From NCBI GenBank assembly GCA_029204225.1, contig CM055094.1, positions 20,259,489 through 20,323,488 on the forward strand: a DNA stretch of 64,000 nucleotides, written 5' to 3'. The position numbers and the translations under genes were made by a program. The notes below the pieces were generated by a model. That model worked only from the letters and a program-made list of their open reading frames with translations, was not told where the DNA came from and searched no databases. The stretch's first letter is position 1. Each line of letters starts with the position of its first letter. The stretch is from Diphasiastrum complanatum. Taxonomy: Eukaryota > Streptophyta > Lycopodiopsida > Lycopodiales > Lycopodiaceae. This document shows positions 560-49,696 of the stretch, one piece after another.

Positions 560-1018
560 ATGGCTCGGACGAAGCAAACCGCTAGGCTTACCCATTTTGT
601 TCAACCGTCCCGTCCCCAGACATCTAAATCCATACGTCTGGAAAGACGCGGAAGACCTCGTCGTCCATGGTTGAGGGACATCAGGGCCTTGCAGAGGTAC
701 ACCAAACTTGTGATCCTGAAAGCAGCCTTGTATTGGGCTGTGAGAGAGGTTACACAAGATATGACCACACATCTGCCCTATGCAGTGAGGTGGAATATCG
801 CTGCATTGGAGGCCCTCCATATTGAATACGAGGACTTCCAGACAAAAATGTTTGAGGATTCGATGTTGTGTTCCCTTCATGGCAAGAGGGTGACACTGAT
901 GCCAAAGGACATGCTTCTTGTCATGAGGTTTCGAAACACCTATGACAGCGGTATGCCACATGGCAAATCATGCAGGCTTGAGGGTTGCCATGTGGCAAGC
1001 CATGTAGGCCTACCATAA
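560..1018 (+). CDS. Divergent histone H3-like protein, copy 1 (152 aa)
   Basis: A single uninterrupted frame starts in a plant-like context (tcaATGGC). Residues 2-9 are ARTKQTAR, identical to the start of histone H3. The K9-S10 position reads L-T, and a short basic linker (residues 10-36) replaces the rest of the tail, so the K27 context is absent. Residues 37-128 match the histone fold in order: LRDIRALQRYTKL (alpha-N), VREVTQD (alpha-1), the loop with RW, AALEAL (alpha-2), then FEDSMLC and KRVTLMPKD (alpha-2/alpha-3). The C-terminus after about residue 130 is encoded by the start of the downstream satellite and differs from normal H3. Length and fold fit the H3 family (about 135 aa). Some positions (DSMLC, RVTLM, RW at loop 1) recall plant CENH3. 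Expression and nucleosome incorporation are unknown. It could be a multicopy retrogene or a pseudogene family. Confidence 0.82.
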   Translation: MARTKQTARLTHFVQPSRPQTSKSIRLERRGRPRRPWLRDIRALQRYTKLVILKAALYWAVREVTQDMTTHLPYAVRWNIAALEALHIEYEDFQTKMFEDSMLCSLHGKRVTLMPKDMLLVMRFRNTYDSGMPHGKSCRLEGCHVASHVGLP

Positions 1019-1670
1019 CCTTGTATGTCAAGCTACCTAGGCCCTATGCCACGTAGGCTTGAGTGGACCTAGAGATCTATATATATATATAGATGGGCTC
1101 AAAAGTTGCCACTTGGCAAACCACAGAGGCCTACCATAGGCTTGCGTGGCAGGCCACATAGGCATGGCATATTTCTACCACATAGGCTTGCCATAGGCTT
1201 GTGTGGCAAGCAAACCAAGCTCTGCCATGTAGGCTTGAGTGGAGCTAGAGAGAGAGAGCTGGGGCTCCCAAGTTGCCATGTGGCAAGCCATGTAGGCATG
1301 TCATGAGATGAACCATAGGCTTGCGCGGCAGACCACATAGGCATGGCATATTTCTGATGCTTCCCACGTAAGCATGTTGCAGGATACCACATAGGCTTGC
1401 CATAGGCTTGTGTGGCAAGCCAACCAAGCTCTGCCATGTAGGCTTGAGTGGAGCTAGAGAGAGAGAGCTGGGGCTCCCAAGTTGCCATGTGGCAAGCCAT
1501 GTAGGCCTATCATAGGCTTGCGTGGTAGGTCATATAGGCATGACATAGGCTTGATGCTAGTATGTTCATGCTGGTATGTTGCAGTCTACCATATAGGCTT
1601 GACATAGGCTTGTGTTGCAAGCCAACTAAGGAATACCACGTGGGTCTGCCATGTAGGCTTGAGTGGAATG
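1019..1670. repeat. Satellite C1: CATGTGG/CAAGCC-rich tandem units
   Basis: About three units of 180-210 bp start near 1093, 1270 and 1479 at a shared word, aagttgccatgtggcaagcc. Each holds variants of CATAGGCTTG and GCCATGTAGG and a short AG run. A TA run lies at 1078-1091. The long reading frames on both strands here are by-products of the repeat, rich in MATW/THKPM-like peptides, and I do not call them genes. Confidence 0.75.
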
Positions 1671-1671
1671 A

Positions 1672-1706
<35 letters not shown>

Positions 1707-1707
1707 T

Positions 1708-1746
<39 letters not shown>
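1671..1746. repeat. Compound AG/TG/AG microsatellite
   Basis: An AG run (1671-1706, one interruption) is followed by a TG run (to about 1732) and another AG run (to 1746). The TG part is present only in this unit. The matching tracts at 37306, 43506 and 50477 are pure AG or nearly so. Confidence 0.95.
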
Positions 1747-1750
1747 TGAG

Positions 1751-6682: not shown

Positions 6683-6918
6683 GCCCCCATGAAACCATCC
6701 CACATGATGGCTGATTCTAGACTACACAATGAGAACCTTTATGACTGGGCCCAGTTTGCTTCCAACTGCCTCCATGACTATATCAAGAACAAGCAAACCT
6801 CCACATTATTAGGCTATCTTCTGATAGATGTCACTTTGCAGCAGTTGAGCCACCGACCTCAAGTTCGATACCAGTTGACACTAGCAGATAAAAGCTTGTG
6901 AGACTCCCTCAGAACCAA
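6683..6918 (+). pseudogene. Fragment of unknown gene L (middle part)
   Basis: The frame 6689-6901 contains HMMADSRLHNENLYDWAQF, NCLHDYIKNKQ and then LLIDVTLQQLSHRP. It runs without a break through the stretch that carries stops in the other L copies, so it best preserves this part of the ancestral reading frame. It ends where copia sequence begins. The same L-to-copia junction is found at about 27110. Confidence 0.5.
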
Positions 6919-8330: not shown

Positions 8331-9164
8331 AGGAATCATATGCACATAAATATCAGTTGAATCATCATGCAATAATCAATCCAAATATCTCACAAATCAA
8401 GCAAAATTGAACACAATCTTGACTAGAATTGCATTAACTTGATGAGCACTTGTCAAAAACTTTGGGCTGACCCTAAAATTTAATTTCTAAGATCTCAATA
8501 AGTCTAAGAACTAACTATTACAGTACCAAAGATAAGGATCTACATTCCTTTTGACTGATTGAAAACTACGTGGTAGACCTATGTCCCTTTGTGTGAATAT
8601 TTTATGGATCCAAACATCTAGTGTGTGGCTATTAGGCTAGAGATAGCATGATATATTAATCTCAACATCAATTGGAGCGAGCTTCCGATCCACTTGAACA
8701 CGAAACTTACCAGACTATTTGCTTCATGATGTAAATGTGAATCCAACTTATCAACAGTGTGCACAATGTATCACTATCTTCATGTGGCAGAAAGTGAGAG
8801 ATGTGAGACACTTTACCACAAACAGGCTTGAAAAAATTGGAAGGTAATTTGGTTGTACAAGAAGCAAGCGTTAAAGATTGTGCTCTCTTTCTCTTACCTT
8901 AAATGGTGCAAAAAAGCTACTAGAATTTTGAACCAATAATATCACAAGCTACATTCATATGTGCTAAGATAACACGAAAGTGCAGCACAATTTGCTTATA
9001 ATAGGCTACTTGCAAATGATCATAATCATGGTGAGCTGCAAACTCGATCTTTGTCATTACAAATTAGCCTACACTTGGTATAAATAGCATCATTTCTACC
9101 AAAAAGAAACTTTCAGAGGAAGTTGATTTGTAGAAAAACTAGAACTTCAACCTTAGAAAAGTCT
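8331..9164. other. Non-coding spacer with second ~180-bp H repeat
   Basis: The only structure I see is the ~180-bp repeat at about 8577-8757, in the same orientation as at 6395-6575. The rest is AT-rich with no supported frame. It is repeated at about 28520-29430. Confidence 0.5.
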
Positions 9165-9581: not shown

Positions 9582-11118
9582 ATGTTGAGGGGTAGTGCTA
9601 CTGGAGCTTGTCAAAACCACACATTCAACACCGATTTGGATTTAAAGCACTCTACTAGTACGTTATCGCAAAGAAACATCATCTTTTCCACATCCTATGA
9701 GAGCAACATTGCTCCAAATTTTTCCACAAATTTCTATTCTCCATACACTATCGAGCAATACTCTACATACACTGCTCATAGAGCCGCGCTCCCATACTCT
9801 GCAATCACTGTGGACCGAGCCGAGCATACATACTCTGCATTCGCTGTGGAACGAGCTCACCGTCCATACTCTGCATACAAAGTTGACTGAGCTGAGTCCA
9901 TCAAAAGTTGACCGATCCGAAGCCCTTCATAGTCGATCGAGCAGAGACTCCACTTGTCTGTTACCAGAGCCGAACCTTCAACAGATTCATCAACCGAGTC
10001 CATAACATGTCTGCCACAACATCTTCCAGTTCTGATGACCCAACTCAAGACAAAATTGACATCACCATGGAAAGCCTCGATATCTCTGAGATGAACACTT
10101 GGTACCAGGTGGCACACTAGTTTCTGAGCCACATAGAGTTCCAACTTCCTCTTTTCAGTGGCTATCAGAGCCCATTTCTATTGCATATTGCTTATAACCA
10201 CACTGACAGATTTTCCAGTTCATGCTATCTCCTAACCAATTTCTGGAGCTGACCTCAATACATTTGGCTTCCTTAGGGGACAAACACAGTCAACAGGACC
10301 CTCAAAAAGATTGAATCCACAGCATACTTCAAATACATAGACCCCTCAGTGGACAAATGGAAACAAAAAGATGGTTACCGTATCGAGGTCATAAATGATA
10401 AGCCCTTAGCTGCTCCATGCGCCTATCTAACGAAATATACATAGCGCTATAGGTCCAAGATCATACGTATCCCCATGAAACTATTCCACATGATGGCTGA
10501 TTATAGACTACACGATCAGAACCTTTATGACTGGGCCAAGTTTGCTTCCAACTGCGTCCATGACTATATCAAGAACAAGCAAACCTCCAGTTATTGGGCT
10601 ATCTTCTGATAGATGTCACTGTAGCAGTTGAGCCACCGACCTCGAGTTTGAGACCACTTGATGCTAGCAGATAAAAGCTTGGGAGACTCCCTCAGAACCA
10701 GCCAAGAATACCAACTCTACTTCCAGGCCTATTGCAACAGATTCCACGCAAGCGGCTTCTCAAAAAAGAAAGAGTTCTTTCTCTCCACAAGGGCCAACTG
10801 CAAAGCACCAAACGATCGGCCTAGTGAAGCTTACATCGAGAGAGACACCCATATCCTCTATGTCACAGACGAAGGATCATTCTGCTGAAGAGTCTTTTGC
10901 TCAACATGAAGACACCACCACACTGGTCCAACCACCACCAACACAACAATCCAGGCAAAGGACCAAGATACGAGCGAAGCGTCATGCTTCATCAGATGAA
11001 AGAGACTCAGATGATATGGAGCTTGACCTCACTAGTAACGTATGTAGTTAACTGGAAGTTGGGTAGCCGCAACGCGTGGGGTCCATACTTCAAGATTCTA
11101 TTTTCTACCATTAACTAA
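9582..11118 (+). pseudogene. Unknown gene L, copy 1, disrupted
   Basis: The region starts with a 36-bp minisatellite (about 9755-9890; ctctgcattc-type units) that would encode a 12-residue repeat of the HTLHSLWTE type. A candidate start at 10007 gives MSATTSSSSDDPT, then a segment with MESLDISEMNTWYQ, stopped near 10100. Further along come FGFP, IESTAYFKYIDP, FHMMADYRLHDQNLYDWAKF and LGDSLRTSQEYQLYFQAY (10658-10888), then a Ser/Asp-rich part (SSDERDSDD) and an end of NWKLGSRNAWGPYFKILFST. Several frameshifts and stops break it. I recognise no family; a gag-like or captured host protein are both possible. Confidence 0.45.
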
Positions 11119-11576
11119 CATAACTTCTCATGTAAATGCAAATCGTATTGCACATCAAACTTTTCTTTCCATTTACTCAAAGCGTTCACATAAAAGAAAA
11201 ACAGTCTTATGAATCTGAAAATCATGGCAAGAAACTTTGAATATTTTGGACAATGAGCGCCAACGTGAATCTAAATTATTGAAATTCAGAAAATACGGAG
11301 TGTGTGGGATCAAATGGAGCGACAAGGTTATTTCAAACTTTTGCAATTTCAACACACATCTATTGAAAAAATATTTTGCTTATTTTGCTCATAACTGCAA
11401 AGCTTTGATTTTGCATATAAAGCAAGAAACTTGGAGTGTGATGGAGCAAAAAGAGCGCCAAGGTCATTTCAAACTTTTCCAATTAATTTTTTTTTTATAA
11501 TTAAGACGAGTTTTAATAGCTTACAAGATATATAACAAGTTGGTTTTCTACTAGATTAATCTATCGATTATTAAGA
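11119..11576. other. AT-rich spacer between L and N
   Basis: It contains two loosely similar stretches with ggagtgtg and ttatttcaaacttttgcaat-type words (about 11300 and 11440), i.e. a degenerate internal repeat. An open frame at 11237-11500 is not conserved in other copies. No gene is supported. Confidence 0.4.
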
Positions 11577-11891
11577 TGTATAAATATCATCTCCATATTG
11601 ATCTTCCCACAGAATATGCTCCACTGTCGAGAAAAATTCTGAAAGGATCCACCTTACCAGCTCACCAACGGATGAAAGACAAGAAACAAGTTTCAAACAG
11701 GTTTTAAAGAAGATCATGAAATTCTATTTTGGATTTTTAGTAAAACAGAATATCCAGAGATAATTAAGAATCATATGAGCGACACACCACTCAATGTTCC
11801 TAGAACAGGTCATTTTAAGACGAAATGGTATTTGGTTCACACACCAAGAGCTACAGGGAGTGATAATCCAAAACTTAGCGAAAAGTTTTAA
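11577..11891 (+). pseudogene. Unknown gene N, copy 1 (internally deleted)
   Basis: The 5' part matches the N start (KYHLHIDLPTEYAPLSRK). It is joined by deletion near 11690 to the C-terminal exon-like part: GFKEDHEILFWIFSKTEYP, then HFKTKWYLVHTPRATGSDN and SEKF before a stop at about 11889-11891. The joint is out of frame. The C-terminal frame is open here and in the copy at 41329-41520, so it was probably coding. Function unknown. Confidence 0.4.
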
Positions 11892-11978
11892 CTGATCAAA
11901 CAACATTTATATAGCTAAAACCAATAAAACCCAACCCGTACACTCGTCGATCCAACTGCAGATCAGATCTATGGCGCA

Positions 11979-12390
11979 TAATACAACCGTCCACACGTGT
12001 GAGACCACACATGCTACAATACACGTCAATCTGCCATTCGGCCACGTGCCCACATGAGCGAGCTAACACGTGCCAGAACACATGTCACCAAACCATTCGA
12101 CCACATGGCCACATGTGCAAGTTTCACACATGCGAATACATAAGTGTGGTCCCACACGTCAGGTACTGATTGGGCCACGTGACCACACGTGCGAGCCGAT
12201 ACGTGCAAGAACACATGTCGGCCACGTGTCCCCACTTGGGATCCCACATGTGTTGATCCAAACGTGCTATTTCACACATGCGTATACAAACATGTGGTTC
12301 CACATAACAACTATTGACTAGGCCACGTGTCACTGGGATTCACACGTGCCAACTTTTTTCTCCTATATAAGTCCATTCCCGGCGATTGTA
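11979..12390 (+). promoter_or_regulatory. G-box array A2 with TATA box, not followed by H3
   Basis: A longer version of array A1 (about two and a half ~160-bp periods), dense in CACGTG, ACGTG and CATGTG words. TATATAA is at 12364-12370. Twenty bases past the TATA box the H3 leader is cut off and replaced by a fragment of gene L (12391 on), so this promoter-like block now faces different sequence. Confidence 0.65.
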
Positions 12391-12660
12391 CAATGGCCGG
12401 TGATTCCAGGGATTTCAGAAAGGTCAACATACGACGAGTTGAGGCTACAACTACCAGGTCTAGTGTTGACGTATGCATTTGAGAAAGTGCCGATTATCAA
12501 TCCATGGCATTCCTTATTAATTACGAGTGTTTTTGAGATTGAGGGTTGGATCCTATAAAAATTATTTCCAACATAGCCTTGCAATCAGAAGAAGGCCACA
12601 ATATGATATCCTGACTGATCAAGAAATGCGTGTTTCTTGATTCTTGTTCTTTGAAATGCT
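12391..12660 (+). pseudogene. 3' fragment of gene L fused behind array A2
   Basis: Homologous to 60520-60700. It reads IPGISERSTYDELRLQL and then LVLTYAFEKVPIINPWHSLL in one frame (to 12558). A second frame starting with an ATG in good context at 12393 gives a 29-residue peptide ending at 12482. The fusion to the G-box promoter is visible directly; a transcript is inference. Confidence 0.4.
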
Positions 12661-18660: not shown

Positions 18661-20385
18661 AGTGTCATGCTTCATCAGATGAAACAGACTCAAATGATAT
18701 GGAGTTTACATTCGAGGAGTTCCATGGCCCAAAAGGGCTGTCTAAGAAATGCCATGTAAGAGAGAGAAAATCGTCGAATTTTAAAACTCTGACCGAGTTT
18801 TTGGTCTGCTCGCACAACTCCGATGACTTGACCTCACTAGTAACGTATGTAGTTAACTGGAAGTTGGGTAGCCGCAACGCGTGGGGTCCATACTTCAAGA
18901 TTCTATTTTCTACCATTAACTAACATGACTTCTCATGTAAATGAAAATCGTATTGCACATCAAAGTTTTCTTTCCATCTACTAAAGCGTTCACATCAAAG
19001 AAAAACAGTCTTATCGATCTGCAAATCATGGCAAGAAACTTTGAATATTTTGGATCACAATGAGCGCCAACGTGAATCTAAATTTTTGAAATTCAGAAAA
19101 TACGGAGTGTGTTGGATCAAATGGAACGGCAAGGTTATCTCAAAATTTTGCAATTCAAAAATTTGCAATTTCAACACACATCTATTGAAAAAATATTTTG
19201 CTTATTTTGCTCATAACTGCAAAGCTTTGATTTTCCATATAAAGCAAGAAACATGGAGTGTCATGGATCAAAAACAGCACCAAGGTCATTTCAAACTTTT
19301 CCAATTATTTTTTTTATAATTAAGACGAGTTTTCATAGCTTACAAGATATATAACAAGTGGGTTTTCTACTAGATTAATCTATCGATTATTAAGATGTCT
19401 AAATATCATCTCCGTATTGATCTTCCCACAAAATATGCTCCACTGTCGAGAAAAAATCTGAAAGGGTCCACCTTACCAACTCACCAAAGGACGAAAGACA
19501 GGAAACATTGTGATCTATGGGATATACAAGCAAAGCGTCATGCTTCATCAGATGAAACAGACTCAAATGATATGGAGTTTACATTCGAGGAGTTCCATGG
19601 TCCAAAAGGGCTGTCTAAGAAATGCCATGTAAGAGAGAGAAAATCGTCGAATTATAAAACTCTGACCGAGTTTTTGGTCTGCTCGCACAACTCCGATGAC
19701 TTGACCTCACTAGTAACGTATGTAGTTAACTGGAAGTTGGGTAGCCGCAACGCGTGGGGTCCATACTTCAAGATTCTATTTTCTACCATTAACTAACATG
19801 ACTTCTCATGTAAATGCAAATCGTATTGCACATCAAAGTTTTCTTTCCATCTACTAAAGCGTTCACATCAAAGAAAAACAGTCTTATCGATGTGCAAATC
19901 ATGGCAAGAAACTTTGAATATTTTGGATCACAATGAGTGCCAATGTGAATCTAAATTTTAGAAATTCAGAAAATACGGAGTGTGTTGGATCAAATGGAGC
20001 GGCAAGGTTATCTCAAACTTTTGCAATTTCAACACACATCTATTGAAGAAATATTTTGCTTATTTTGCTCATAACTGCAAAGCTTTGATTTTGCATATAA
20101 AGAAACATGGAGTGTGATGGATCAAAAAGAGCGCCAAGGTCATTTCAAACTTTTCCAGTTATTTTTTTTTATAATTAAGACGAGTTTTAATAGCTTACAA
20201 GATATATAACAAGTGGGTTTTCTTCTAGATTAATCTATCGATTATTAAGATGTCTAAATATCATCTCCATATTGATCTTCCTACAGAATATGCTCCACTG
20301 TCGAGAAAAAATCTGAAAGGATCCACCTTACCTGCTCACCAAAGGACGAAAGGCAGGAAACATTGTGATCTATGGGTTGATGGAA
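18657..20385 (+). repeat. 873-bp tandem duplication spanning the end of L and the start of N
   Basis: The word tcatgcttcatcagatgaaa starts at 18665 and again at 19538, a period of 873 bp. Each unit holds a frame with MEFTFEEFHGPKGLSKKC and CHVRERKSSN leading into the L ending (NWKLGSRNAWGPYF), then AT-rich spacer and the N start. The duplication joint near 19529 fuses the N start to the L end in one open frame (19395-19796, 133 codons), an accidental chimera. Confidence 0.7.
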
Positions 20386-20863
20386 GTTTGTATCCAATCG
20401 ATCCAAGCTCAATGCAACATCCAAATTTTAGATTGGTCACACAACTCATACTGTTTTTGTGTGCTAGACACAATTGTCTATTGGGTTATTGTGAAAGATT
20501 GAAAAGTTATGGCATTAGTTATTCAATGAAAAAAATCCACTGTTTGGAAAATATGTTGAATGGTTTGCTTACTGACTACCGAGAAAAAGAAACTTTTTTT
20601 TGCAAACAAAAGAAGAAAATGAAATCTTGGAGATAGATAATTCTCGTTTGCAAGATATTATATTAAACCTCAACCAAGAAACTGACAATATGAAACTAAT
20701 TGTACAAACATTGTGTACCTCATAATGTCAAATAAATGTAGAAGTAAACACATTATGGAAGAAAATACTGAACAATAAGCGAAAAAGAGTTATTTTAAAA
20801 AGTATTGACGAGCTCTCAACAAGTGGGGGTCAACGGAAAAAAAGAATGTATCCTTTCAAGTAG
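20250..20863 (+). pseudogene. Unknown gene N, longest copy
   Basis: The frame starts MSKYHLHIDLPTEYAPLSRK and runs through WVDGSLYPIDPSSMQHP and LILFLCARHNCLLGYCERLK. Near 20594-20601 an eight-T run causes a frameshift; reading on in the next frame gives a heptad-like, coiled-coil style stretch (EENEILEIDNSRLQDIILNL) to a TAA at 20723, and beyond it a basic tail (KKILNNKRKRVILKSIDEL) to a TAG at 20861. So the ancestral product was probably about 200 aa with a C-terminal coiled coil and a basic end. No family recognised. Confidence 0.45.
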
Positions 20864-21855
20864 GATTATGTTTTAAACTATTCATGTGTTTTGTTTCATC
20901 TAGCACATCAATGGTTGTGAATTGTTTTTATCTAAATCTTAACTCGAAGTTGAGATTCATTTTGGCCTCCAAAATTGCCAAATGAAAAACCAAACTAGTT
21001 GACAAATTTTCACACCATGTCCTCTAGACATCTCCATTGATGAATACAATTTATAAGTTTTTGAAAGCAATGAACCAAAATTTAGCCAATTAGAATGGGT
21101 CCAAACTCGACCTCAACCACTTATCTACTTGCCAGAGGTAGTTAAACCACTATTTAGGCCCTTATTAACAAATATGAAACTAACTCGAAGTTGAGATTCA
21201 TTTTGGTCTCTAAAATTGCCAAATAAAAAACCAAACTAGTTGAAAAATTTTCACACCATGTCCTCTAGACATCTCCATTGATGAATACAATTTATAAGTT
21301 TTTTAAGGCAATTCCGAATGCAATCAGGGTCATGTTTTAGCTCAGTGATCTCTCTTTCACATTACAAAAGTTTTTAAAATACATCGTTCTAGGATTCGAG
21401 AATGGATTTTGGAATGAATTATATTTCATTGAAGTTTGAACGACCTTGAAAATTTGAAGATTGAATGAAGCTGTAATCTAGGATTTTCAAAACTCAAAGT
21501 TGTTCATGCAAATTAAGTCACTTTTGTTAATATATGAAAATGTTGTAATCTAGGCTTTTCAAAAACAAATTGAAAATTTGTTAAAAAAAATGCTTATTTC
21601 TTGATACACGACTAAATAACATATAGTTAAAAAGCATATAATGAATCTATGCTATGTTCCAAACATATGCAAGTTACATTGCATTCATTCTCACTTCACA
21701 AATCATTGGAATTTGAATTTGAACGAAATCATTGAAATGAGTAGATCAATGTTTAAATGAAGCGATAAATATTATAATCTTCCCATTTAATTCAATTATA
21801 TTTATATATTATTGGTGCATTAATAGGGTAAAAACTCGTTATTATTATTTTCTTT
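20864..21855. repeat. Spacer E2 (partial, no left arm)
   Basis: Starts inside the 240-bp direct repeats (from about 20941; one and a half units) and continues like 2770-3326. The left inverted arm and the first part of E are missing. Confidence 0.6.
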
Positions 21856-24360: not shown

Positions 24361-24417
<57 letters not shown>

Positions 24418-29849: not shown

Positions 29850-31395
29850 ATGCTGAGGGGTAGTGCTACTGGAGCTTGTCAAAACCACACATTCAACACC
29901 GATTTGGATTTAAAGCTCTCTACTAGTACGTTATCGCAAAGAAACATCATCTTTTCCACATCCTATTAGAGCAACATTGCTCCAAATTTTTCCACAAATT
30001 TATATTCTCCATACACTATCGAGCAATACTCTATATACACTGCTCATAGAGCCGCGCTCCCATACTCTGCAATCACTGTGGACCGAGCCGAGCGTACATA
30101 CTCTGCATTCGCTGTGGAACGAGCTCACCGTCCATACTCTGCATACAAAGTTGACTGAGTCGAGTCCATCAAAAGTTGACCGATCCGAAGCCCTCCACTG
30201 TTGATCGAGCCGAGACTCCACTTGTCTGTTACCAGAGCTGAACCTTCAACAGAGTCATCAGCTGAGTCCAAAACATGTCTGCCACAACATGTTCCAGTTC
30301 TGATGATCCAACTCAAAATAGAATTGACATCACCATGGAAAGCCTCGATATCTCTGAGTTGAACACTTGGTACTAGGAGGCACACTAGTTCCTGAGCCAC
30401 ATAGAGTTCCAACTTCCTCTTTTCAGTGGCTATCAGAGCCCATTTCTAATGCCTATTGCTTATAACCACAATGACAGATTTTCCAGTTCATGTTATCTCC
30501 TAATCAAATTTTGTTTTTATTATTCCTATTTCTGGAGCTGAACTCAATACATTTGGCTTCCCTAGGGGACCAAACACAGTCAACAGGACTCTCAAAAAGA
30601 TTGAATCCATAGCATACTTCAAATACATAGACCCCTCAGTGGACAAATGGAAAAAAAAGATGGTTACCGTATCGAGGTCATAAATGATAAGCCCTTAGCT
30701 ACTCCATGCACCTATCTAACTAAATATACATAGCGCTATAGGTCCAAGATCATGCGTATCCCCATGAAACTATTCCTCATGATGGTTGATTCTAGACTAC
30801 ACGATCAGAACCTTTATGACTGGGCCCAAGTTGCTTCCAACTGCCTCCATGACTATATCAAGAAAAAGCAAACCTCCAGATATTGGGCTATATTCTGATA
30901 GATGTCACTGTAGCAGTTGAGCCACCGACCTTGAGTTTGAGACTACTTGATGCTAGCAGATCAAAGCTTGAGAGACTCCCTCAGAACCAGCCAAGAATAC
31001 CAACTCTACTTCCAGGCCTATTGCAATAGATTCCACGCAAGCTGCTTCTCAAAAGAGAAAGAGTTCCTTCTCTCCACAAGGGCCAACTGCAAAGCACCAA
31101 ACGGTCGGCCTAGTGAAGCTTACATCGAGAAAGACACCCATGTCCTCTATGTCACAGACGAAGGATCATTTTGCTGAAGAGAACATGAAGACACCACCAC
31201 ACTGGTCCACCCACCACCAACACAACAATCCAGGCAAAGGACCAAGATACAAGCGAAGCGTCATGCTTCAGCAGATGAAATAGACTCAGATGATATGGAG
31301 CTTGACCTCACTAGTAATGTATGTAGTTAACTGTAAGTTGGGTAGCCGCAACACATGGGGTCCATACTTCAAGATTCTATTTTCTACCATTAACT
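29850..31395 (+). pseudogene. Unknown gene L, copy 4, disrupted
   Basis: Minisatellite at about 30025-30150. MSATTCSSSDDP starts at 30274, stopped at 30373 (tactag). LADQSLRDSLRTSQEYQLYF is at 30947-31177. The end (LVTYVVN) is cut early by a changed base at the TGG of NWK. Frameshifts as in copy 1 plus private ones. Confidence 0.42.
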
Positions 31396-31856
31396 AACGT
31401 AACTTCTCATGTAAATGCAAATCGTATTGCACATCAAAGTTTTCTTTCCATCTACTCAAAGCGTTCACATCAAAGAAAAACAGTCGTATCGATCTGAAAA
31501 TCGCTGCAAGAAACTTTGAATATTTTGGATCACAATGAGCACCAACGTGAATCTAAATTTTTGAAATTCAGAAATTACGGAGTGTGTTGGATTAAATAGA
31601 GCGACAAGATTATTTCAAACTTTTGCAATTCAAAAATTTGCAATTTCAACACACATCTATTGAAAAAATATTTGGCTCATTTTGCTCATAACTGCAAAGC
31701 TTTGAAAGAAACTTGGAGTGTGATGGAGCAAAAAGAGTGCCAAGGTCATTTCAAAATTTTCCAATTAATTTTTTTTTATAATTAAGACGAGTTTTAATAG
31801 CTTACAAGATATATAACAAGTTGGTTTTCTACTAGATTAATCTATCAATTATTAAG
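31396..31856. other. AT-rich spacer between L and N
   Basis: Matches 11119-11576 with small deletions. No gene seen. Confidence 0.4.
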
Positions 31857-32172
31857 ATGTCTAAATATCATCTCCATATTGATCTTTCCACAGAATATGC
31901 TCCACTTGTCGAGAAAAAATCTGAAAGGATCCACCTTACCAACTCACCAAAGGACGAAAGACAGGAAACAAGTTTCAAACAGGTTTTAAAGAAGATCATG
32001 AAATTCTATTTTGGATTTTTACTAAAACAGAATATCCAAAGATAATTAAGAATCATATGAGCGACACACCACTCAATGTTCCTAGAATAGGTCATTTTAA
32101 GACAGAATGATATTTGGTTCACACACCAAGAGCTACAGGGAGTGAAAATCCAAAACTTAGCGAAATGTTTTA
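31857..32172 (+). pseudogene. Unknown gene N, copy 4 (internally deleted)
   Basis: Same deletion joint as copy 1: MSKYHLHIDLSTEYAPL start, then EILFWIFTKTEYP and HFKTE, where a TGA replaces the Trp codon seen elsewhere. Confidence 0.4.
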
Positions 32173-32259
32173 ACTGATCAAGCAACATTTATATAGCTAA
32201 AACCAAAAAAACCCAAGCCGTACACTCGTCGATCCAACATCGAATCAGATCTATGGCAC

Positions 32260-32640
32260 ATAATACAATCATCCACACGTGCTACAATACACGTCAATCT
32301 GCCATTCGGCCACGTGCCCACACATGCGAGCTAATACGTGCCAGAACACATGTCACCAAACCATTCGACCAGATGGCCACATGTGCGGATACAGAAGTGT
32401 GGTCCCACACGTCAGTTACTAATTGGGCCACATGACCACACGTGCGAGCCGATACGTGCAAGAACACATGTCCCTGATCCATTCGGCCACGTGTCCCCAC
32501 ATGGGATCCCACACGTGTTGATCCAGACGTGCAGTTTCACACATGCATATACAAACGTGTGGTTCCACATGTCAGCTATTGACTGGGCCACGTGTCGCTG
32601 GGATTCACACGTGCCAACTTTTTTCATCTATATAAGTCCA
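32260..32640 (+). promoter_or_regulatory. G-box array A3 with TATA box
   Basis: ACGTG/CACGTG words throughout, TATATAA at 32629-32635. It faces the truncated H3-like copy 2, whose ATG is 295 bp from the TATA box because the leader has a deletion near 32745. Confidence 0.65.
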
Positions 32641-32923
32641 TTCCTGGGGATTGTATAGGTTTTCACGTAATTTGTTGTCATGTTTGATTGCTTTCATATG
32701 ACCTGGATTTGTAATATCGCCATCATGCGAGCGACCTCGTCCCCAGGCCTATCAACCTGACTTTCCCAGTATTGCCATCATGCAAGCCCCTACCTCTCCA
32801 AGCCACTCTCTCGTGTTGTAGCGATATCACCCTTAGAGTTCTCAGTGTCGCCATTACGCGACATAATTTAGCTCTCTCTTCTGCTGTATCTCTGTCCTCG
32901 CGTAGTATAGATATCCCACCTCA

Positions 32924-33102
32924 ATGGCTCGGACGAAGCAAACCGCTAGGCTTACCCATTTTGTTCAACTGTCCTGTCCCCAGACATCTGAACCCATACG
33001 TCCGCAAAGACGCGGAAGACCTCGCCGTCCATGGTTGAGGGACATCAGGGCCTTGTAGAGATACACCGAACTTCTGATCCTGAAAGCAGCCTTGTACCGG
33101 GC
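32924..33102 (+). pseudogene. Histone H3-like, copy 2, truncated
   Basis: Keeps MARTKQTARLTHF and the linker to LRDIRAL, then CAG has become TAG (33056-33058) at codon 45. The H3 sequence continues as RYTELLILKAALYRA and stops at about 33100, where it joins gene G sequence of the opposite orientation through a shared ggc. The rest of the histone fold is gone. Confidence 0.75.
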
Positions 33103-33983
33103 CCATGACAGTCATCAGAAACTGGCAGAACTTGTGTTGTAGCTTGATTGTAGGATCGTCAGAATCGGAAGTTAATTTGCAAAAATTCTTGATGGATGTA
33201 TGACATTCCTTCTGAGAAGAGAACGAGCCATCTATTATCGCAAAGTTGCAAGGATATGCTGATATGTTGTCTTCTGATCTCCATGCTAGCGCTCGTCTTC
33301 TACGAAAACTTGGGTCGAAAGAAGGATCATTCTGAATTTGCTTTGGTGAAAGCATTTCATAGACGTACGTATCTTTGAGGAATGGAGCTCTCCAACCGGT
33401 CGACGCAATTAAATCTGGCTAAGAAGAGCTCCCGATCGAATTAGATGCCGTCGTTGGAACTGACTTGTCCCCGTCTTTTCATCCTATCAGAGTCGACTTA
33501 CTGGCATGCTTATGATTTTGCTCACATAGCCAGTTGAAGCAGTTTCGAGTCAGTATTTGTCTTCGACCAGTAAATGCTTTTGATCTCTGGGTGTACATGT
33601 AACCCTCATCAGCATTGATGATAAATCCTGAAGTGCACATCTCTTCGAAGATATGTATGGAGTCTGCAGGAAAGTATTGAATCCGTAAATAGATCCTGGT
33701 ATCCTCCATGTGAAGGACCGCTTTGTTGGGATTGATGGAAAATTGTGGATCTTGCTCAAACCTTTGGCCCGCCTCCAAATCTCTTCCGCATATAGATTTC
33801 GTAGTTTCTGATATTTTGGCCAAACGGATTTTCTCAGCCGCCGATACTATGTTCATTTCTAGGTCCTGCTCCATCTTCCTAAGCCGATGTTGGATCAACA
33901 ATCCTTTTCTGAGACTCTTCAGCCTCCTGTAAATGACAAAAATAAGAGGCGAAATCAGAAGGACAGAGAACATCGATAATGCA

Positions 33984-34015
<32 letters not shown>

Positions 34016-34030
34016 TTCCATGCATTGCAT
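33103..34030 (-). pseudogene. Unknown two-module protein G, copy 3
   Basis: The 5' end at 34030 reads MQCMESL with a Ser-Leu run, then LSMFSVLLISPLIFVIYRR and the charged helix. Module A has the same GRDLE-to-GQRFEQ deletion as copy 2 and is open to 33479. Module B (33478-33103) follows after a frameshift and ends abruptly at the H3 fusion. Confidence 0.45.
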
Positions 34031-35395: not shown

Positions 35396-35785
35396 TGGCA
35401 CGTAATACAATCGTCCACACGTGCTACAATACATGTCAATCTGCCATTCGGCCACGTGCCCACACATGCGAGCTAATAGATGCCAGAACACAAGTCACCA
35501 AACCATTCGACCAGATGGCCACATATGCGGATACAGAAGTGTGGTCCCACACGTCAGTTACTAATTGGGCCACATGACCACACGTGCGAAGCCGATACGT
35601 GCAAGAACACATGTCGCTGATCCATTCGGCCACATGTCCCCACATGGGATCCCACACGTGTTGATCCAGATGTGCAGTTTCACACATGCGTATACAAACG
35701 TGTGGTTCCACATGTCAGCTATTGACTGGGCCACGTGTCGCTGGGATTCACACGTGCCAACTTTTTTCATCTATATAAGTCCATT
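35396..35785 (+). promoter_or_regulatory. G-box array A4 with TATA box, upstream of H3-like copy 3
   Basis: CACGTG and ACGTG words in the same order as A1 and A3, with a few changed to CACATG. TATATAA at 35772-35778; the H3-like ATG is 329 bp past the box. Confidence 0.68.
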
Positions 35786-36106
35786 CCCGGGGATTGTATA
35801 GGTTTTCACGTAATTTGTTTTCATGTTTGATTGCTTCCATACGACCTGCATTCGTGATATCGCCATCATGCGAGCGACCTCGTCCCCAGGCCTATTCCTT
35901 ACACCCTCTCACATCGTAGCGATATAATGCTGACTTTCCCAGTATCGCCATCATGCAAGCCCCTACCTCTCACCGCCTGTCTCTGCCACTCTCTCGCGTT
36001 GTAGCGATATCACCCTTAGAGTTCTCAGTGTCGCCATTACGCGAGATAATTTAGCTCTTTGTTCTGCTGTATCTTTGTCCTCGCGTGGTATAGATATCCG
36101 GCCTCA

Positions 36107-36520
36107 ATGGCTCGGACGAAGCAAACCGCTAGGCTTACCCATTTTGTTCAACTGTCCTGTCCCCAGACATCTGAACCCATACGTCCGCAAAGACGCGGAA
36201 GACCTCGCCGTCCATGGTTGAGGGACATCATGGCCTTGCAGAGGTACACCAAACTTCTGATCCTGAAAGCAGCCTTGTACCGGGCTATGAGGGAGGTTAT
36301 ACAAGGCATGACCAACCATCTGCCCTATGAAGTGAGGTGGAATATCGTTGCATTGGAGGCCCTCCATATTGCATACGAGGACTTCCAGACAAAATTGTTT
36401 GAGGATTCAATGCTGTGTTCCATTCATGGCAAGAGGGTGACACTGATGCCCAAGGACATGCTTCTTGTCATGAGGTTTCGAAAGACCTATGACAGCGGTA
36501 TGCCACATGGCAAATCATGA
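36107..36520 (+). CDS. Divergent histone H3-like protein, copy 3 (137 aa)
   Basis: I chose the ATG at 36107, which gives MARTKQTARL, rather than an upstream in-frame ATG that lacks support in the other copies. The frame is intact through LRDIMALQRYTKLLILK, the loop with VRWN, FEDSMLCSIHGKRVTL and PKDMLLVMRFRKTYDSG, then stops after MPHGKS. Compared with copy 5 there are roughly four to five amino-acid changes and a few silent ones. Leader and promoter array are complete. It is one of the three copies that look most intact (with 1 and 5). Confidence 0.82.
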   Translation: MARTKQTARLTHFVQLSCPQTSEPIRPQRRGRPRRPWLRDIMALQRYTKLLILKAALYRAMREVIQGMTNHLPYEVRWNIVALEALHIAYEDFQTKLFEDSMLCSIHGKRVTLMPKDMLLVMRFRKTYDSGMPHGKS

Positions 36521-41093: not shown

Positions 41094-41520
41094 TTATGAA
41101 TGGAACATTAAGCAATACGATAAACTCAAAGAGTCTTAATTTCAGTGTGTAGTCCGAAAATAATATTTGGTGGTTGGCAGCTTCCCAGGTTGAAATCTAT
41201 TCTATTGAGTACTAGCAACTAATTCATTTCAAGAATTAATGGTTTTGTGTTTCAAGCTAATATTGTTTTGTTATTATAGGTATCAGTTCAATTCTCTTAA
41301 AATAGTTCATGATTTTGTGTTTCAAATAGGTTTTAAAGAAGATCATGAAATTCTATTTTGGATTTTTAGTAGAACAGAATATCCAAAGATAATTAAGAAT
41401 CATATGAGCGACACACCACTCAATGTTCCTAGAATAGGTCATTTTAAGACGAAATGGTATTTGGTTCACACACCAAGAGCTACAGGGAGTGATAATCCAA
41501 AACTTAGCGAAAAATTTTAA
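41094..41520 (+). pseudogene. Unknown gene N, 3' part with possible intron
   Basis: The frame 41239-41520 ends GFKEDHEILFWIFSRTEYP, HFKTKWYLVHTPRATGSDN, SEKF. Upstream, the sequence ttgttattatag before gtatcag and aaatag before gttttaaag look like 3' splice sites, so the frame may be two exons with intron remains. The stretch 41094-41238 is unique to this copy. Confidence 0.4.
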
Positions 41521-41604
41521 CTGATCAAACAACATTTATATAGCTAAAACCAATATAACCCAAGCTGTACACTCGTCGATCCAACAGCGGACCAGATCTA
41601 TGGC

Positions 41605-42010
41605 GCGTAATACAACCGTCCACACGTGTGAGACCACACGTGCTACAATACATGTCAATCTGCCATTCGGCCATGTGCCCACATGAGCGAGCTAACACGT
41701 GCCAAAACACATGTCACCAAACCATTCGACCACATGGCCACATGTGCAAGTTTCACACGTGCGGATACAGAAGTGTGGTCCCACACGTCAGTTACTGATT
41801 GGGCCACGTAACCATACGTGTGAGCCGATACGTGCAAGAACACATGTCGCTGATCCATTCGGCCATGTGTCCCCACATGGGATTCCAGACGTGTTGATGC
41901 AGACATGCAGTTTCACACATGCGTATACAAACGTGTGGTTCCACATGTCAGCTACTGACTAGGCCACGTTTCACTGGGATTCACACGTGCCAACTTTTTT
42001 CTCCTATAGA
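41605..42010 (+). promoter_or_regulatory. G-box array A5, TATA box mutated
   Basis: Full-length array, but the TATA box reads TATAGAAG (about 42005-42012) instead of TATATAAG. It precedes H3-like copy 4. Confidence 0.6.
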
Positions 42011-42337
42011 AGTCCATTCTCGGGGATTGTATAGGTTTTCGCGTAATTTGCTGTCATGTTTGATTGCTTCCATACGACCTGCATTCATGATATCGCCATC
42101 ATGCGAGCGACCTTGTCCCTAGGCCTATTCCGTACACCCTCTCATGTCGTAGCGATATCAGCCTGACTTTCCCAGTATCGCCATCATGCAAGCCCCTGCC
42201 TCTCCCTGCCTGTCTCTGCCACTCTCTCGCGTAGTAGCAATATCACCTTTAGAGTTCTCAGTGTCGCCATTACGCGAGATAATTTAGCTATCTTTTGTTG
42301 TATCTCTGTCCTCACGTGGTATAGATATCCGGCCTCA

Positions 42338-42784
42338 ATGGCATGGACGAAGCAAACCGCTAGGCTTACCCATTTTGTTCAACTGTCCCGTCCCCAGACA
42401 TCTGAACCCATATGTCCACAAAGACGTGGAAGACCTCACCATCCATGGTTGAGGGACATCAGAGCCTTGCAGAGGTACACCAAACTTGTGATCCTGAAAG
42501 CAGCCTTGTACCAGGCTGTGAGGGAGGTTACACAAGATATGACCACCCATCTGCCCTATGTAGTGAGGTGGAATATCGCTGCATTGGAGGCCCTCCATAT
42601 TGCATACGAGGACTTCCAGACAAAATTGTTTGAGGATTTGATGCTGTGTTCCATTCATGGAAATAGGGTGACACTGATGCCCAAGGACATGCTTCTTGTC
42701 ATGAGGTTTCGAAAGACCTATGACAGCGGTATGCCAGATGGCAAATCATGCAGGATTGAGGGTTGCCATGTGGGCCTACCATAA
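42338..42784 (+). CDS. Divergent histone H3-like protein, copy 4 (148 aa)
   Basis: The frame is open, but the tail starts M-A-W-T-K-Q, so Arg2 of the H3 tail is lost. Further private changes are RRGRPHHP, FEDLMLC and HGNRVTL. The C-terminus runs into satellite C (CRIEGCHVGLP) like copy 1. With the TATA mutation upstream, this is probably the most degraded of the full-length copies. Confidence 0.72.
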   Translation: MAWTKQTARLTHFVQLSRPQTSEPICPQRRGRPHHPWLRDIRALQRYTKLVILKAALYQAVREVTQDMTTHLPYVVRWNIAALEALHIAYEDFQTKLFEDLMLCSIHGNRVTLMPKDMLLVMRFRKTYDSGMPDGKSCRIEGCHVGLP

Positions 42785-43538: not shown

Positions 43539-43539
<1 letters not shown>

Positions 43540-43540
43540 C

Positions 43541-45452: not shown

Positions 45453-45486
<34 letters not shown>

Positions 45487-46482: not shown

Positions 46483-47115
46483 TCAGGAATAGTGGGCATC
46501 ATGCTTATGATATTGCTCGCGCAGCCACTTGGAGCAGGTTCGAGTCAGCATTTGTCTTCGACCAGCAAATGCTTTTGATCTCTGGGTGTAAGCCTTATCA
46601 GCATTGATGATAAAGCCTGAAGTGCACATCTCTTCGAAGATTTGTATAGAGTCTGCAGGAAAGTATTGTATCCGTAAATAGATCCTGGTATCCTCCATGT
46701 GAAGCGCCGGTTTTTTGGGATTGATGAAAAATTGTGGATCCTGCTCAAACCTTCGGCCCATGACAGTCATCAGAAACTGGCAGAACTTGTGTTGTAGCTT
46801 GATTGTAGGATCGTCAGAATCGGAAGTTAATTTGCAAAAATTCTTGATGGATGTATGACATTCCTTCTGAGAAGAGAACGAGCCATCTATTATCGCAAAG
46901 TTGCAAGGATATGCTGATATGTTGTCTTCCGATCTCCATGCTAGCGCTCGTCTTCTACGAAAACTTGGGTCAAAAGAAGGATCATTCTGAATTTGCTTTG
47001 GTGATTGATCAAGCATTTCATAGACGTACGTATCTTTGAGGAATGAAGCTCTCCAACCGGTCGACGCAATTAAATATGGCTGAGAAGAGCTCCTGATCGA
47101 ATTAGATGCCATCGT
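46483..47115 (-). pseudogene. Unknown protein G, copy 5 (module B only)
   Basis: Module B is intact and open for 209 codons (47112-46483), from SSQPYLIASTGWRASFLKD to HKHDAHYS, the longest unbroken module B in the window. Module A and the N-terminus are deleted at 47115, where spacer H begins. Confidence 0.45.
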
Positions 47116-48240
47116 TGCCCAATTGTATCACATTATAGTTGCCCAAGACAAAGGTAGTGCACGAGAAATTAAGGCAACAGAAAAGGCACATTCACAGGTT
47201 TGTTTGAAGGGAGCTTTTCATGCCGCATAAGCACCAAGAGATGTGACGAAATAAAAGGTGAAAGTAGATTAATATTGATGTGTGATGTCCCTTTGTGTGA
47301 ATATTTTCTGGATCCAAACATCTAGTGTGTGGCTGTTAGGCTAGAGATAGCATGATATATTAATCTCAACATCCATTGGGGCGAGCTTCCGATCCACTTG
47401 AACACAAAACTTACAAGACTATTTGCTTCATGATGTAAATGTGAATCCAACTTATCAACCATTACAGAAAATTTGAGCACAAAACGGGCCTTTCAAAAAC
47501 ATATCTTTAATTTTTTTTGGTCAAAAGTTTCTTCCACATGGTCCAATCAAAACACTCAAATTTGAAATCTACGTAACGTAGCTCCTTCAAATTGATTTTC
47601 TTTTCTTTTTAAAAGAACTGTAATTTTCCGTCGAGCAGCCCGTAAATAAGCCATTTTATTTGTAGTATAGTATGCAACTCAGCAAAAAAAACAGTGTAAC
47701 TCTTGAACGGCAACTCGGATAGAGACGATTACGGTGCCATAAGAAAGCCCTCGACGAAAGCTTTTTCAACGACACCCAACATGACCCAGTTTCGAGCTAC
47801 GGTGAAGAAGTTATGGCTAGTAAGGGAGTAGCATTATGGTGCATTTAAAAGTAAAGGATCAAGCAAATACTTATAAAACTGGTAAATGGCAAGTTAGACA
47901 CAATGATAAATTCATGAGAATAAGTTAGTGAAGCTCAAAAAGTCATTTGGAGTGAGTTCTTGCCAAGTCCCAATTTGTTACCTTGCTATTTGTGAACTTG
48001 CCCCAAGATAAGGTGAAAAAAAACTTTTAATATTACGAATGACAACCATGAAGCTATCATAGTTTCAATCAACATCGATATAATTAAACAACAAAAATCA
48101 TCACATACGTGGGAACATTACAAAAAATCACAATATCACGCTTTACTGCCATGCTGCCATGCATGCTTTTTAGGAAATGAAAACAAACCCTGATGGGAGA
48201 AGATTTGATGCTGGCACTTCCTTCTTCAGGCATGGAAATG
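47116..48240. repeat. Spacer H5 and K upstream region
   Basis: H starts in its middle (no poly-C), with the ~180-bp repeat at about 47285-47460, then the same plant-repeat-like stretch as 25240-25390 at about 47690-47840. No gene. Confidence 0.5.
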
Positions 48241-48566
48241 AAATTCAGAAGCTTTGAAAAGCTCTAGCTTCAAAGAATTGATTTTCCATCTTTTAGTGGC
48301 GATCTATCATTCACTACGACAGTGCTTGATTACTCCTTCGCATCCTTGGACACCATCTACATACATCCACCACGGATCCGGAGCGCCATCATCATCCATT
48401 TTCAAAAACCCTAAGCTGCCGAGATCTGCTACATTACACAAAAATTGTCACATCTAGCATGAGCCAAATGCTGAGGGGTAGTGCTCCTGGAGCTTGTCAA
48501 CACCGCACATTCAACACCGATTTGGGTTGAAAGCTCGCTACTAGTATGTTACTGAGAAGAAACATC
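48241..48566 (+). pseudogene. Block K5, interrupted ORF
   Basis: Same frame as K2, TAG after FEKL near 48265. Fused at 48566 to array A6 at the same point as 35395. Confidence 0.25.
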
Positions 48567-48960
48567 ATCGTTGGCACGTAATACAATCGTCCACACGTGC
48601 TACAATACACGTCAATCTGCCATTCGGCCACGTGCCCACACATGCGAGCTAATAGATGCCAGAACACAAGTCACCAAACCATTCGACCAGATGGCCACAT
48701 ATGTTGATACAGAAGTGTGGTCCCACACGTCAGTTACTAATTGGGCCACATGACCACACGTGCGAAGCCGATACGTGCAAGAACACATGTCGCTGATCCA
48801 TTCGGCCACATGTCCCCACATGGGATCCCACACGTGTTGATCCAGACGTGCAGTTTCACACATGCGTATACAAACGTGTTGTTCCACATGTCAGCTATTG
48901 ACTGGGCCACGTGTCGCTGGGATTCACACGTGCCAACTTTTTTCATCTATATAAGTCCAT
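48567..48960 (+). promoter_or_regulatory. G-box array A6 with TATA box, upstream of H3-like copy 5
   Basis: Nearly identical to A4. TATATAA at 48948-48954; the H3-like ATG is 329 bp past the box. Confidence 0.68.
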
Positions 48961-49282
48961 TCCTGGGGATTGTATAGGTTTTCACGTAATTTGTTGTCAT
49001 GTTTGATTGCTTCCATATGACCTGCATTCGTGATATCGCCATCATGCGAGCGACCTTGTCCCCAGGCCTATTCCTTACACCCTCTCACATCGTAGCGATA
49101 TAATGCTGACTTTCCCAGTATCGCCATCATGCAAGCCCCTACCTCTCACCGCCTGTCTCTGGCACTCTCTCACGTTGTAGGGATATCACCCTTAGAGTTC
49201 TCAGTGTCGCCATTACGCGAGATAATTTAGCTCTCTGTTCTGCTGTATCTCTGTCCTCGCATGGTATAGATATCAAGCCTCA

Positions 49283-49696
49283 ATGGCTCGGACGAAGCAA
49301 ACCGCTAGGCTTACCCATTTTGTTCAACTGTCCTGTCCCCAGACATATGAACCCATACGTCCGCAAAGACGCGGAAGACCTCGCCGTCCATGGTTGAGGG
49401 ACATCATGGCCTTGCAGAGGTACACCAAACTTCTGATCCTGAAAGCAGCCTTGTACCGGGCTATGAGGGAGGTTGTACAAGGCATGACCACCCATCTGCC
49501 CTATGCAGTGAGGTGGAATATCGTTGCATTGGAGGCCCTCCATATTGCATACGAGGACTTCCAGACAAAATTGTTTGAGGATTCGATGTTGTGTTCCATT
49601 CATGGCAAGCGGGTGACACTGATGCCCAAGGACATGCTTCTTGTCATGAGGTTTCGAAAGACCTATGACAGCGGTATGCCACATGGCAAATCATGA
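49283..49696 (+). CDS. Divergent histone H3-like protein, copy 5 (137 aa)
   Basis: Intact frame with ARTKQTARL tail, LRDIMALQRYTKLLILK, the loop ending AVRWN, FEDSMLCSIHGKRVTL, PKDMLLVMRFRKTYDSG and a stop after MPHGKS. Very close to copy 3, so this copy and its promoter were duplicated recently together with blocks K to C. No intron is needed to read the fold. Confidence 0.82.
   Translation: MARTKQTARLTHFVQLSCPQTYEPIRPQRRGRPRRPWLRDIMALQRYTKLLILKAALYRAMREVVQGMTTHLPYAVRWNIVALEALHIAYEDFQTKLFEDSMLCSIHGKRVTLMPKDMLLVMRFRKTYDSGMPHGKS

What the first reader, a model, noticed from the sequence alone, without database searches (positions are those of the whole stretch)
560..49696. A multicopy, intronless, highly divergent histone H3 gene family carried in a complex tandem repeat
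Five copies (560, 32924, 36107, 42338, 49283) start with the H3 tail motif ARTKQTAR and continue into a recognisable but very divergent histone fold (LRDI...LQRYTKL, FEDSMLC, KRVTLMPKD). Four keep a full reading frame, each with leader and promoter-like array. Histone genes do occur in tandem clusters, but core histones are normally almost invariant; a cluster of strongly diverged H3-like genes embedded in transposon debris is unusual.
Basis: partly seen in the sequence, partly recalled or inferred. Interest (0 to 1): 0.9.

Follow-up and report, generated by a model that had tools for sequence, protein, structure and literature searches.

The report
Transposon carrying its own histone-like gene
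The odd histone-like genes in this window are broken-off pieces of a mobile DNA element that carries its own strongly altered histone H3 gene and has spread through the genome, and that gene seems to have been kept working in the elements that did the spreading.

Summary
In detail: five H3-like copies at the stated places, four with open frames, all four clear histones (Pfam E 3e-17 to 8e-20). The interpretation needs changing. They are not a histone cluster but 5' fragments of one gene of a ~10-kb DNA transposon with CATTAG...CTAATG ends. A whole-genome search gave 6341 first-look candidates; 150 were scored, all matched, on 20 of the 23 largest contigs. Dispersed copies encode a ~357 aa fusion: H3-like domain, basic linker, unknown C-terminal domain. 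In 16 dispersed copies, variants shared between copies are depleted of amino-acid changes (28:31) against singletons (59:17; p=5e-4), in the true frame only: past purifying selection in source elements. Window copies evolve nearly neutrally. The tail keeps H3 residues 1-8, with K4 the only lysine of the majority sequence. Two insertions show empty sites without target duplication. A second H3-like repeat family also exists. Fungal hAT elements with captured H3 genes are the nearest precedent. Likely role (inferred): a histone mimic that loads element chromatin and resists silencing.

The parts
560..1018 (+). H3-like ORF, copy A (152 aa; truncated fusion gene, non-element 3' codons)
32924..33103 (+). 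H3-like fragment, copy B, codons 1-60, TAG at codon 45, joined to other repeat
36107..36520 (+). H3-like ORF, copy C (137 aa)
42338..42784 (+). H3-like ORF, copy D (148 aa; MAWTKQTAR)
49283..49696 (+). H3-like ORF, copy E (137 aa)
1..949 (+). element piece: promoter array and H3 domain (element about -535 to +389 relative to the H3 ATG)
35396..36496 (+). element piece: promoter array and H3 domain (about -682 to +389)
41094..42727 (+). element pieces: gene-1 fragment (about -4081 to -3710) joined to promoter and H3 domain (about -847 to +389)
48572..49672 (+). element piece: promoter array and H3 domain
31301..33102 (+). element pieces: 5' region, gene-1 fragment, promoter, truncated H3 domain
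11022..12392 (+). element pieces: 5' region, gene-1 fragment, promoter array; no H3 domain
18709..19521 (+). element 5' terminus (TIR) and following ~0.8 kb
19582..20941 (+). second element 5' terminus (TIR) with the start of gene 1 (MSKYHL... frame)

Best explanation
SHOWN: the window copies are fragments (promoter plus H3-like domain) of one gene of a ~10-kb multi-gene DNA transposon, caught up in a complex repeat. The intact gene encodes an H3-like domain fused to a basic linker and a C-terminal domain. Dispersed copies bear the mark of past purifying selection in that reading frame; the window copies drift almost neutrally. INFERRED: the protein is the transposon's own histone. It pairs with host H4 and enters nucleosomes on or near the element through its kept alpha2/alpha3 core, and carries the C-terminal domain to chromatin. 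Because the tail keeps residues 1-8 with K4 but lacks K9, K14, K18, K23, K27 and K36, such nucleosomes cannot receive the K9/K27 methylation that silences transposons, but can still be read or marked at K4. Effect: a self-made, silencing-resistant chromatin state that helps the element express and spread.
For: Dispersal: 6341 candidates, 150 scored, all matched, on 20 of the 23 largest contigs; C-terminal domain 4689 candidates, 150 scored, 151 matches, on all 23. Fusion of ~357 aa from the ATG. Shared element boundaries in many loci; inverted ends beginning CATTAGAGGAGTT, 29 bp, 79% in L041, 24 of 29 between the common forms; three copies with the 5' end ~6.0 kb before and the 3' end ~3.9 kb after the H3 start, that start being inferred from the C-terminal hits; clean empty sites for two of them. 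Selection: H3 domain singletons 59N:17S against shared 28N:31S, p=5e-4; C-terminal 169:55 against 32:28, p=1e-3; frames +1 and +2 show nothing (p 0.17-0.71); H3 without CpG-type sites p=1e-3, C-terminal 0.026. K4 kept 16/16 and 32/32; positions matching H3 R83, C110, H113, K115, R116, T118, D123 kept in 15-16 of 16 and 31-32 of 32; K4 the only lysine in the first 40 codons of the majority sequence and of 11 of 16 copies.
Against: The selection test rests on 16 copies, all of which I chose from rows listed without stops in the H3 match; a re-alignment with 18 (H3) and 16 (C-terminal) rows gave weaker p=0.018 and 0.019, and in that of 54 frame tests fell below 0.05, two of them not in the expected frame. 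Mean conservation of all 132 sites is already 14.9 of 16, so kept residues are weak evidence one by one. No expression, protein, nucleosome or chromatin data. AlphaFold of window copy C was poor (pLDDT 57). Transposase assignment rests on motifs only; Pfam and PDB found nothing credible.
Confidence: 0.6

Rival explanations
1. Passive gene capture: a transposon picked up a host H3 gene, which rides along without use, as in Pseudocercospora hAT elements.
For: Precedent in PMC6710886 (abstract and section 6). Window copies look neutral and 30 of 90 array rows hold stops.
Against: In-frame depletion of shared amino-acid changes in the dispersed gene, H3 part and C-terminal part, absent in the other frames; an H3-like domain at about 41% identity to host H3 with histone landmarks kept; an own C-terminal region present at DNA level, at least in part, in the 16 dispersed loci examined.
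Confidence: 0.18
2. Targeting rather than anti-silencing: the histone part tethers the element's machinery to chromatin (or to chaperones), as chromodomains do for chromoviruses (recalled), and the C-terminal domain binds the transposase or DNA ends.
For: Fusion architecture with a basic linker; histone core positions kept; insertions without target duplication suggest an unusual integration step.
Against: No interaction data; no insertion preference tested.
Confidence: 0.3
3. A CENH3 (centromeric H3) gene captured and amplified; the window array would be centromere-linked.
For: LIP.A.F-type helix 1 in dispersed copies, loop 1 longer by 4, RW after loop 1, D-S-M-L-C and RVTLM resemble plant CENH3 (reference CENH3 sequences recalled).
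Against: Tree does not place the family inside CENH3 (families A and B fall together, 72/83, weak); best BLAST score is to canonical H3 for all five queries; tail starts like H3; family B has no loop-1 extension.
Confidence: 0.2
4. Functional host histone-variant cluster.
For: Four of five copies open, promoter-like arrays present; among 32 array copies shared variants are somewhat poorer in amino-acid changes than singletons (39:25 against 53:12, p=0.012).
Against: Same gene lies in transposons genome-wide; copies are truncated relative to it; window variable sites 15/14/14 by codon position; the array contrast is gone without CpG-type sites (p=0.26); open frames among 32 array copies 23 against 19.5 expected without selection.
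Confidence: 0.05
5. Relic of a large DNA virus that encodes histones.
For: Some DNA viruses encode histones (PMC9145170, start of abstract in the listing).
Against: TIR ends, ~10 kb size, thousands of candidates, empty sites; no relative in viral contigs for the H3 domain, the C-terminal domain or a gene-1 piece (these single-protein scans reach close relatives only).
Confidence: 0.03

Closest known systems
Pyrenophora tritici-repentis hAT element with H3L (PMC3538342, section 20 part 1 of 2 and passages read)
   Same: DNA transposon between TIRs with a transposase gene, an ORF of unknown function and a diverged H3-like gene that fits neither H3 nor CenH3
   Different: hAT transposase, 5.6 kb, 26 near-identical H3L genes in a fungus, no fused C-terminal domain mentioned in the part read; here ~10 kb, no hAT match, no target duplication, thousands of candidates, plant-type genome by inference, fusion protein with an in-frame selection signal
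Pseudocercospora fijiensis hAT element with captured histone H3 (PMC6710886, abstract and section 6 read)
   Same: 9.5-9.9 kb TIR element carrying H3-like sequence in hundreds of copies
   Different: 8-bp target duplications, hAT domain, all captured copies inactivated by RIP
CMCT DNA transposons (EnSpm/CACTA, Mirage, Chapaev, Transib, Plavaka, ESTA, Lanisha; passages of PMC12730594 read)
   Same: CA...TG termini; C(2)C then H(3)H motifs before a last E in gene 1
   Different: those make 2-5 bp target duplications; none here; no family-profile match
Spy transposons (passages of PMC4482050 read)
   Same: insertion without target duplication
   Different: Spy inserts within AAATTT; the two sites seen here do not; transposase similarity not shown
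VANDAL/VANC anti-silencing (search listing with starts of abstracts only)
   Same: a plant transposon that encodes its own counter-silencing protein
   Different: that VANC is no histone is recalled, not from a call
Plant CENH3 (sequences recalled)
   Same: several helix-1, loop-1 and alpha2/alpha3 residues
   Different: not nested in CENH3 in the small tree, H3-type tail start

Membership tests
Histone H3 family | histone-fold profile match above curated cut-off | tested here: met
   63-72 bits against cut-off 26.4 for the four open window copies; 80 bits for one dispersed fusion
Histone H3 family | conserved tail with K4, K9, K14, K18, K23, K27, K36 | tested here: not met
   only residues 1-8 kept; K4 the only lysine in the first 40 codons of the majority sequence
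Histone H3 family | assembles with H4 into nucleosomes | not testable with these tools
   no biochemistry; AlphaFold model of low confidence
CENH3 | longer loop 1 | tested here: met
   +4 relative to host H3 in family A; not in family B
CENH3 | groups with CENH3 in a tree | tested here: inconclusive
   12 rows, reference CENH3 recalled; families A and B together at 72/83, not inside CENH3
CENH3 | centromere localisation | not testable with these tools
   no ChIP or imaging
CMCT DNA transposon clade | 5'-CA...TG-3' termini | tested here: met
   CATTAG...CTAATG
CMCT DNA transposon clade | transposase with C(2)C and H(3-4)H between second D and last E | tested here: inconclusive
   patterns written after reading gene 1: C(2)C pattern in 5 and H(3)H-E pattern in 8 of 18 loci scanned, two of the 8 with a stop inside; no profile match
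CMCT DNA transposon clade | 2-5 bp target duplication | tested here: not met
   two empty-site comparisons, none
hAT H3L elements of fungi | hAT transposase and 8-bp target duplication | tested here: not met
   no hAT match in the gene-1 pieces scanned; no duplication
Host tandem histone gene cluster | near-identical copies under strong purifying selection | tested here: not met
   15/14/14 variable sites by codon position, NG86 dN/dS 0.38-0.78; host H3 genes lie elsewhere

The most novel reading that the evidence does not exclude
At least two families of repeats in one genome (family A, in a no-target-duplication TIR transposon; family B, a proline-rich protein ending in an H3-like domain) encode their own histone H3 variants, perhaps of one origin. 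Family A has shed the tail lysines used for silencing while keeping the ARTKQTAR start: mobile elements that build their own chromatin.
Probability: 0.3. Interest if true: 0.93.

Novelty: new variant of a known kind. Interest (0 to 1): 0.77.

Why it matters
Histones are the packaging that hosts mark in order to silence transposons. A transposon with its own selected histone would be a direct counter-move at the level of the nucleosome and would give a testable system for how chromatin identity is hijacked. It also warns that H3-like or CENH3-like hits in such genomes may be transposon genes, and that large repeats can be built from transposon coding pieces that keep open frames without selection.

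Tried and rejected
Host histone cluster: rejected. Chance ORF: rejected by Pfam/PDB. Known RNA or tRNA content of the window: none found. Known domain for the C-terminal part, gene-1, gene-2 and gene-4 pieces or the MEQDLEMN ORF: no Pfam family above its cut-off; PDB tried for two gene-1 pieces and the C-terminal domain, nothing credible. CENH3 membership: not settled. Selection in the other element genes: one gene-1 exon p=0.0016 in frame (its antisense frame also 0.022), but the gene-1 start, the gene-1 C2C exon, gene 2 and gene 4 showed no in-frame signal with 8-13 rows, and gene 2 gave p=0.006 in a non-ORF frame. Family B selection: only 2 shared variants in 6 copies, no test possible. Open-frame retention of dispersed copies (16/16 against 7.9 expected) is NOT used as evidence, because I picked copies listed without stops. 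Third empty-site attempt (C1 insertion): flanks found no empty copy. A fourth intended full-length copy (C5): the 3' end was not in the stretch fetched. L041 and L042, internally deleted copies with both ends, show no evident duplication by eye. Viral relatives: none. The histone-family search of the genome did not complete and not repeated.
Full report
OBSERVATION. Four are open frames of 137-152 aa; the one at 32924 holds a TAG at codon 45 and leaves homology after codon 60. All four open copies match Pfam Histone; copy C matches H3 chains in the PDB. Identity of copy C to the host's own H3 (read from locus L049) is 41% over 137 positions. A TATA-like box lies 277-335 bp before the ATG in 4 of 5 window copies and 11 of 18 other loci, and an array of ACGTG/CACGT cores lies upstream, 16-21 in up to 900 bp for the window copies.

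NOT A LOCAL FAMILY. The window is C3:20259489-20323488 of an unnamed 1.745-Gb assembly. A search with window copy C gave 6341 first-look candidates; the 150 best were scored and all matched. Of those 150 rows, 90 lie in three clusters (C3 18.5-21.8 Mb, 74; C3 29.9-30.2 Mb, 7; C14 49.4-49.9 Mb, 9) and 60 are scattered; together they touch 20 of the 23 largest contigs. Of the 90, 30 hold at least one in-frame stop (transcribed rows counted; best-scoring rows, so biased to intact ones).

THE PARENT GENE. Sixteen scattered loci (L031-L046, all chosen by me from rows without stops in the H3 match) show that the gene runs on for ~225 codons after the H3-like domain in the longest frames: a basic linker (PPRKKRKQAQPKRSQPKPRSP) and a C-terminal domain without known relatives in Pfam or the PDB; in several loci the frame breaks earlier. 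A search with that domain alone gave 4689 candidates; 150 were scored, with 151 matches, on all 23 largest contigs. Array copies, the window's included, match the element only to about +389 from the ATG: they are truncated.

THE ELEMENT. Pairwise comparison of the loci gives one repeat with fixed ends: 5' CATTAGAGGAGTTCCAAGGCCCAAAAGGG and, as reverse complement, 3' CATTAGAGGAGTTTTGAGCACCAAAAGGG, an imperfect 29-bp terminal inverted repeat, 24 of 29 between these common forms, 79% in L041. Three insertions have the 5' end about 6.0 kb before and the 3' end about 3.9 kb after the H3 start (inferred from the C-terminal hits), so the full element is ~10 kb. Joined flanks of two of them match uninterrupted repeats elsewhere with no gap at the join: insertion without target-site duplication. 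In one of the two, the empty copies lack 2 bp, but about 25 bp away from the join. The third had no empty copy. Besides the H3 fusion there are open frames on the same strand upstream (gene 1) and on the other strand on both sides. Gene 1 shows, by eye and pattern, C(2)C (5 of 18 loci), then H(3)H and a G-x-E motif (8 of 18, two with a stop inside) in the order described for CMCT transposases (passages of PMC12730594), with CA...TG termini as in that clade; no profile supports it, and the lack of target duplication departs from that clade. The window itself holds two 5' ends (18709, 19582) and several other element pieces.

SELECTION. In the window, variable sites among the four copies are 15/14/14 by codon position, NG86 dN/dS 0.38-0.78, and coding and upstream divergence are similar: close to neutral. 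For 32 array copies, 23 lack stops against 19.5 expected without selection. In the 16 dispersed copies, variants seen once are 59 non-synonymous to 17 synonymous in the H3 domain, variants shared by two or more copies 28 to 31 (p=5e-4); C-terminal 169:55 against 32:28 (p=1e-3). Reading the same bases in the two wrong frames gives no contrast (p 0.17-0.71), and removing CpG, TpG and CpA sites leaves p=1e-3 for H3 and 0.026 for the C-terminal part. Singletons are mostly decay after insertion; shared variants reflect the source elements, so the source gene was under purifying selection. Array copies show a weaker contrast (53:12 against 39:25, p=0.012; 0.26 without CpG-type sites). A second alignment, with 18 H3 rows (two array loci included) and 16 C-terminal rows, gave p=0.018 and 0.019; across its 54 frame tests 5 were below 0.05, three of them in the expected frames. 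The signal looks real but is moderate.

WHAT THE PROTEIN KEEPS. In the majority sequence of dispersed copies the tail is MARTKQTARLTSFVQPSRPQTSEPVRPQRRGRP: residues 1-8 of H3 and K4 as the only lysine in the first 40 codons (11 of 16 copies have no other). K4 is present in 16/16 dispersed and 32/32 array copies. Positions matching H3 R83, C110, H113, K115, R116, T118 and D123 (numbering recalled) are kept in 15-16 of 16 and 31-32 of 32, against a mean of 14.9 of 16 for all sites. In dispersed copies helix 1 reads LIPKAAF, loop 1 is 4 longer than in H3, and alpha2/alpha3 read DSMLC..HGKRVTLMPKD, partly like plant CENH3. AlphaFold from the window copies alone placed helices at 36-69, 74-107 and 115-129 but with pLDDT 57, so it adds little.

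A SECOND FAMILY. A search with canonical H3 (6060 candidates, 150 scored) finds 13 host H3 genes at 97-99%, some partial H3 hits at 79-93%, and then more than a hundred scattered H3-like frames at 44-57% identity. The six fetched (L051-L056) are one family: a proline-rich N-terminal part and a C-terminal H3-like domain (WLQDIRSYQKSVKFLIPRAPFVRLVKEI...[32 protein letters not shown]), with almost no DNA similarity to family A (two matches of under 70 bp). Families A and B share W, D and G replacements and group together weakly (72/83). Whether the other frames belong to family B was not checked.

MECHANISM. Inferred: the fusion is the element's own H3, incorporated with H4, bringing the C-terminal domain to chromatin; a tail that cannot be methylated at K9 or K27 but keeps K4 would favour open chromatin on the element. 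Tethering of the machinery is the main alternative. None of these steps is shown.

LITERATURE. In the rows listed by searches I saw histone H3 genes inside transposons only in fungi, in hAT elements (PMC3538342 section 20 part 1 of 2 and passages; PMC6710886 abstract and section 6). No plant case turned up there; the lists were capped and the library holds open papers only. Passages only were seen of PMC12730594, PMC4482050, PMC10045372, PMC9210943 and PMC4357034.

Row counts were recounted, fusion length restated as ~357 aa from the ATG, and the choice of the 16 loci restated as wholly from rows without stops; confidence in the best explanation lowered from 0.62 to 0.60 for that reason.

Noticed in passing
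L051-L056 (G000 C10, C17, C12, C19, C10, C4): A second dispersed H3-like family with a proline-rich N-terminal part and the histone domain at the C-terminal side; its repeat type was not worked out.
   Followed up: partly
window 4665-6124, 23631-24517, 32921-34030, 40599-41090, 46483-47112, 55112-56005 (- strand): Repeated ORF family (SQPDLIASTGWRAPFLKD...YPCNFAIIDGSFSSQKECHTSI...) in several copies, also in L048; no Pfam match in the copies scanned.
   Followed up: partly
window 51717-55078: A 1184-bp unit in three tandem copies, with further copies starting at 3702, 22253, 39178 and 45528.
   Followed up: no
window 6685-12390 and 26905-32655: A 5.8-kb duplication inside the array, 92.6% identical.
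   Followed up: no
window 7479-7859 and 27671-28051 (-), 63097-63588 (+): Frames that look by eye like Copia gag fragments with a zinc knuckle, one kind frameshifted; no Pfam match for the two scanned.
   Followed up: no
L036, 2546-5140 relative to the H3 start (- strand): An 865-aa frame that by eye is a Gypsy-type polyprotein ending in a chromodomain-like stretch, next to a family A copy.
   Followed up: no
upstream of the H3 ATG in window and dispersed copies, about -350 to -700: Dense arrays of ACGTG/CACGT cores, up to 34 in 900 bp in L036; few in L033, L037, L040, L042.
   Followed up: partly
G000 C2:46851212 and C2:47901054: TIR element insertions with no target-site duplication and no common motif apparent from two sites.
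   Followed up: partly
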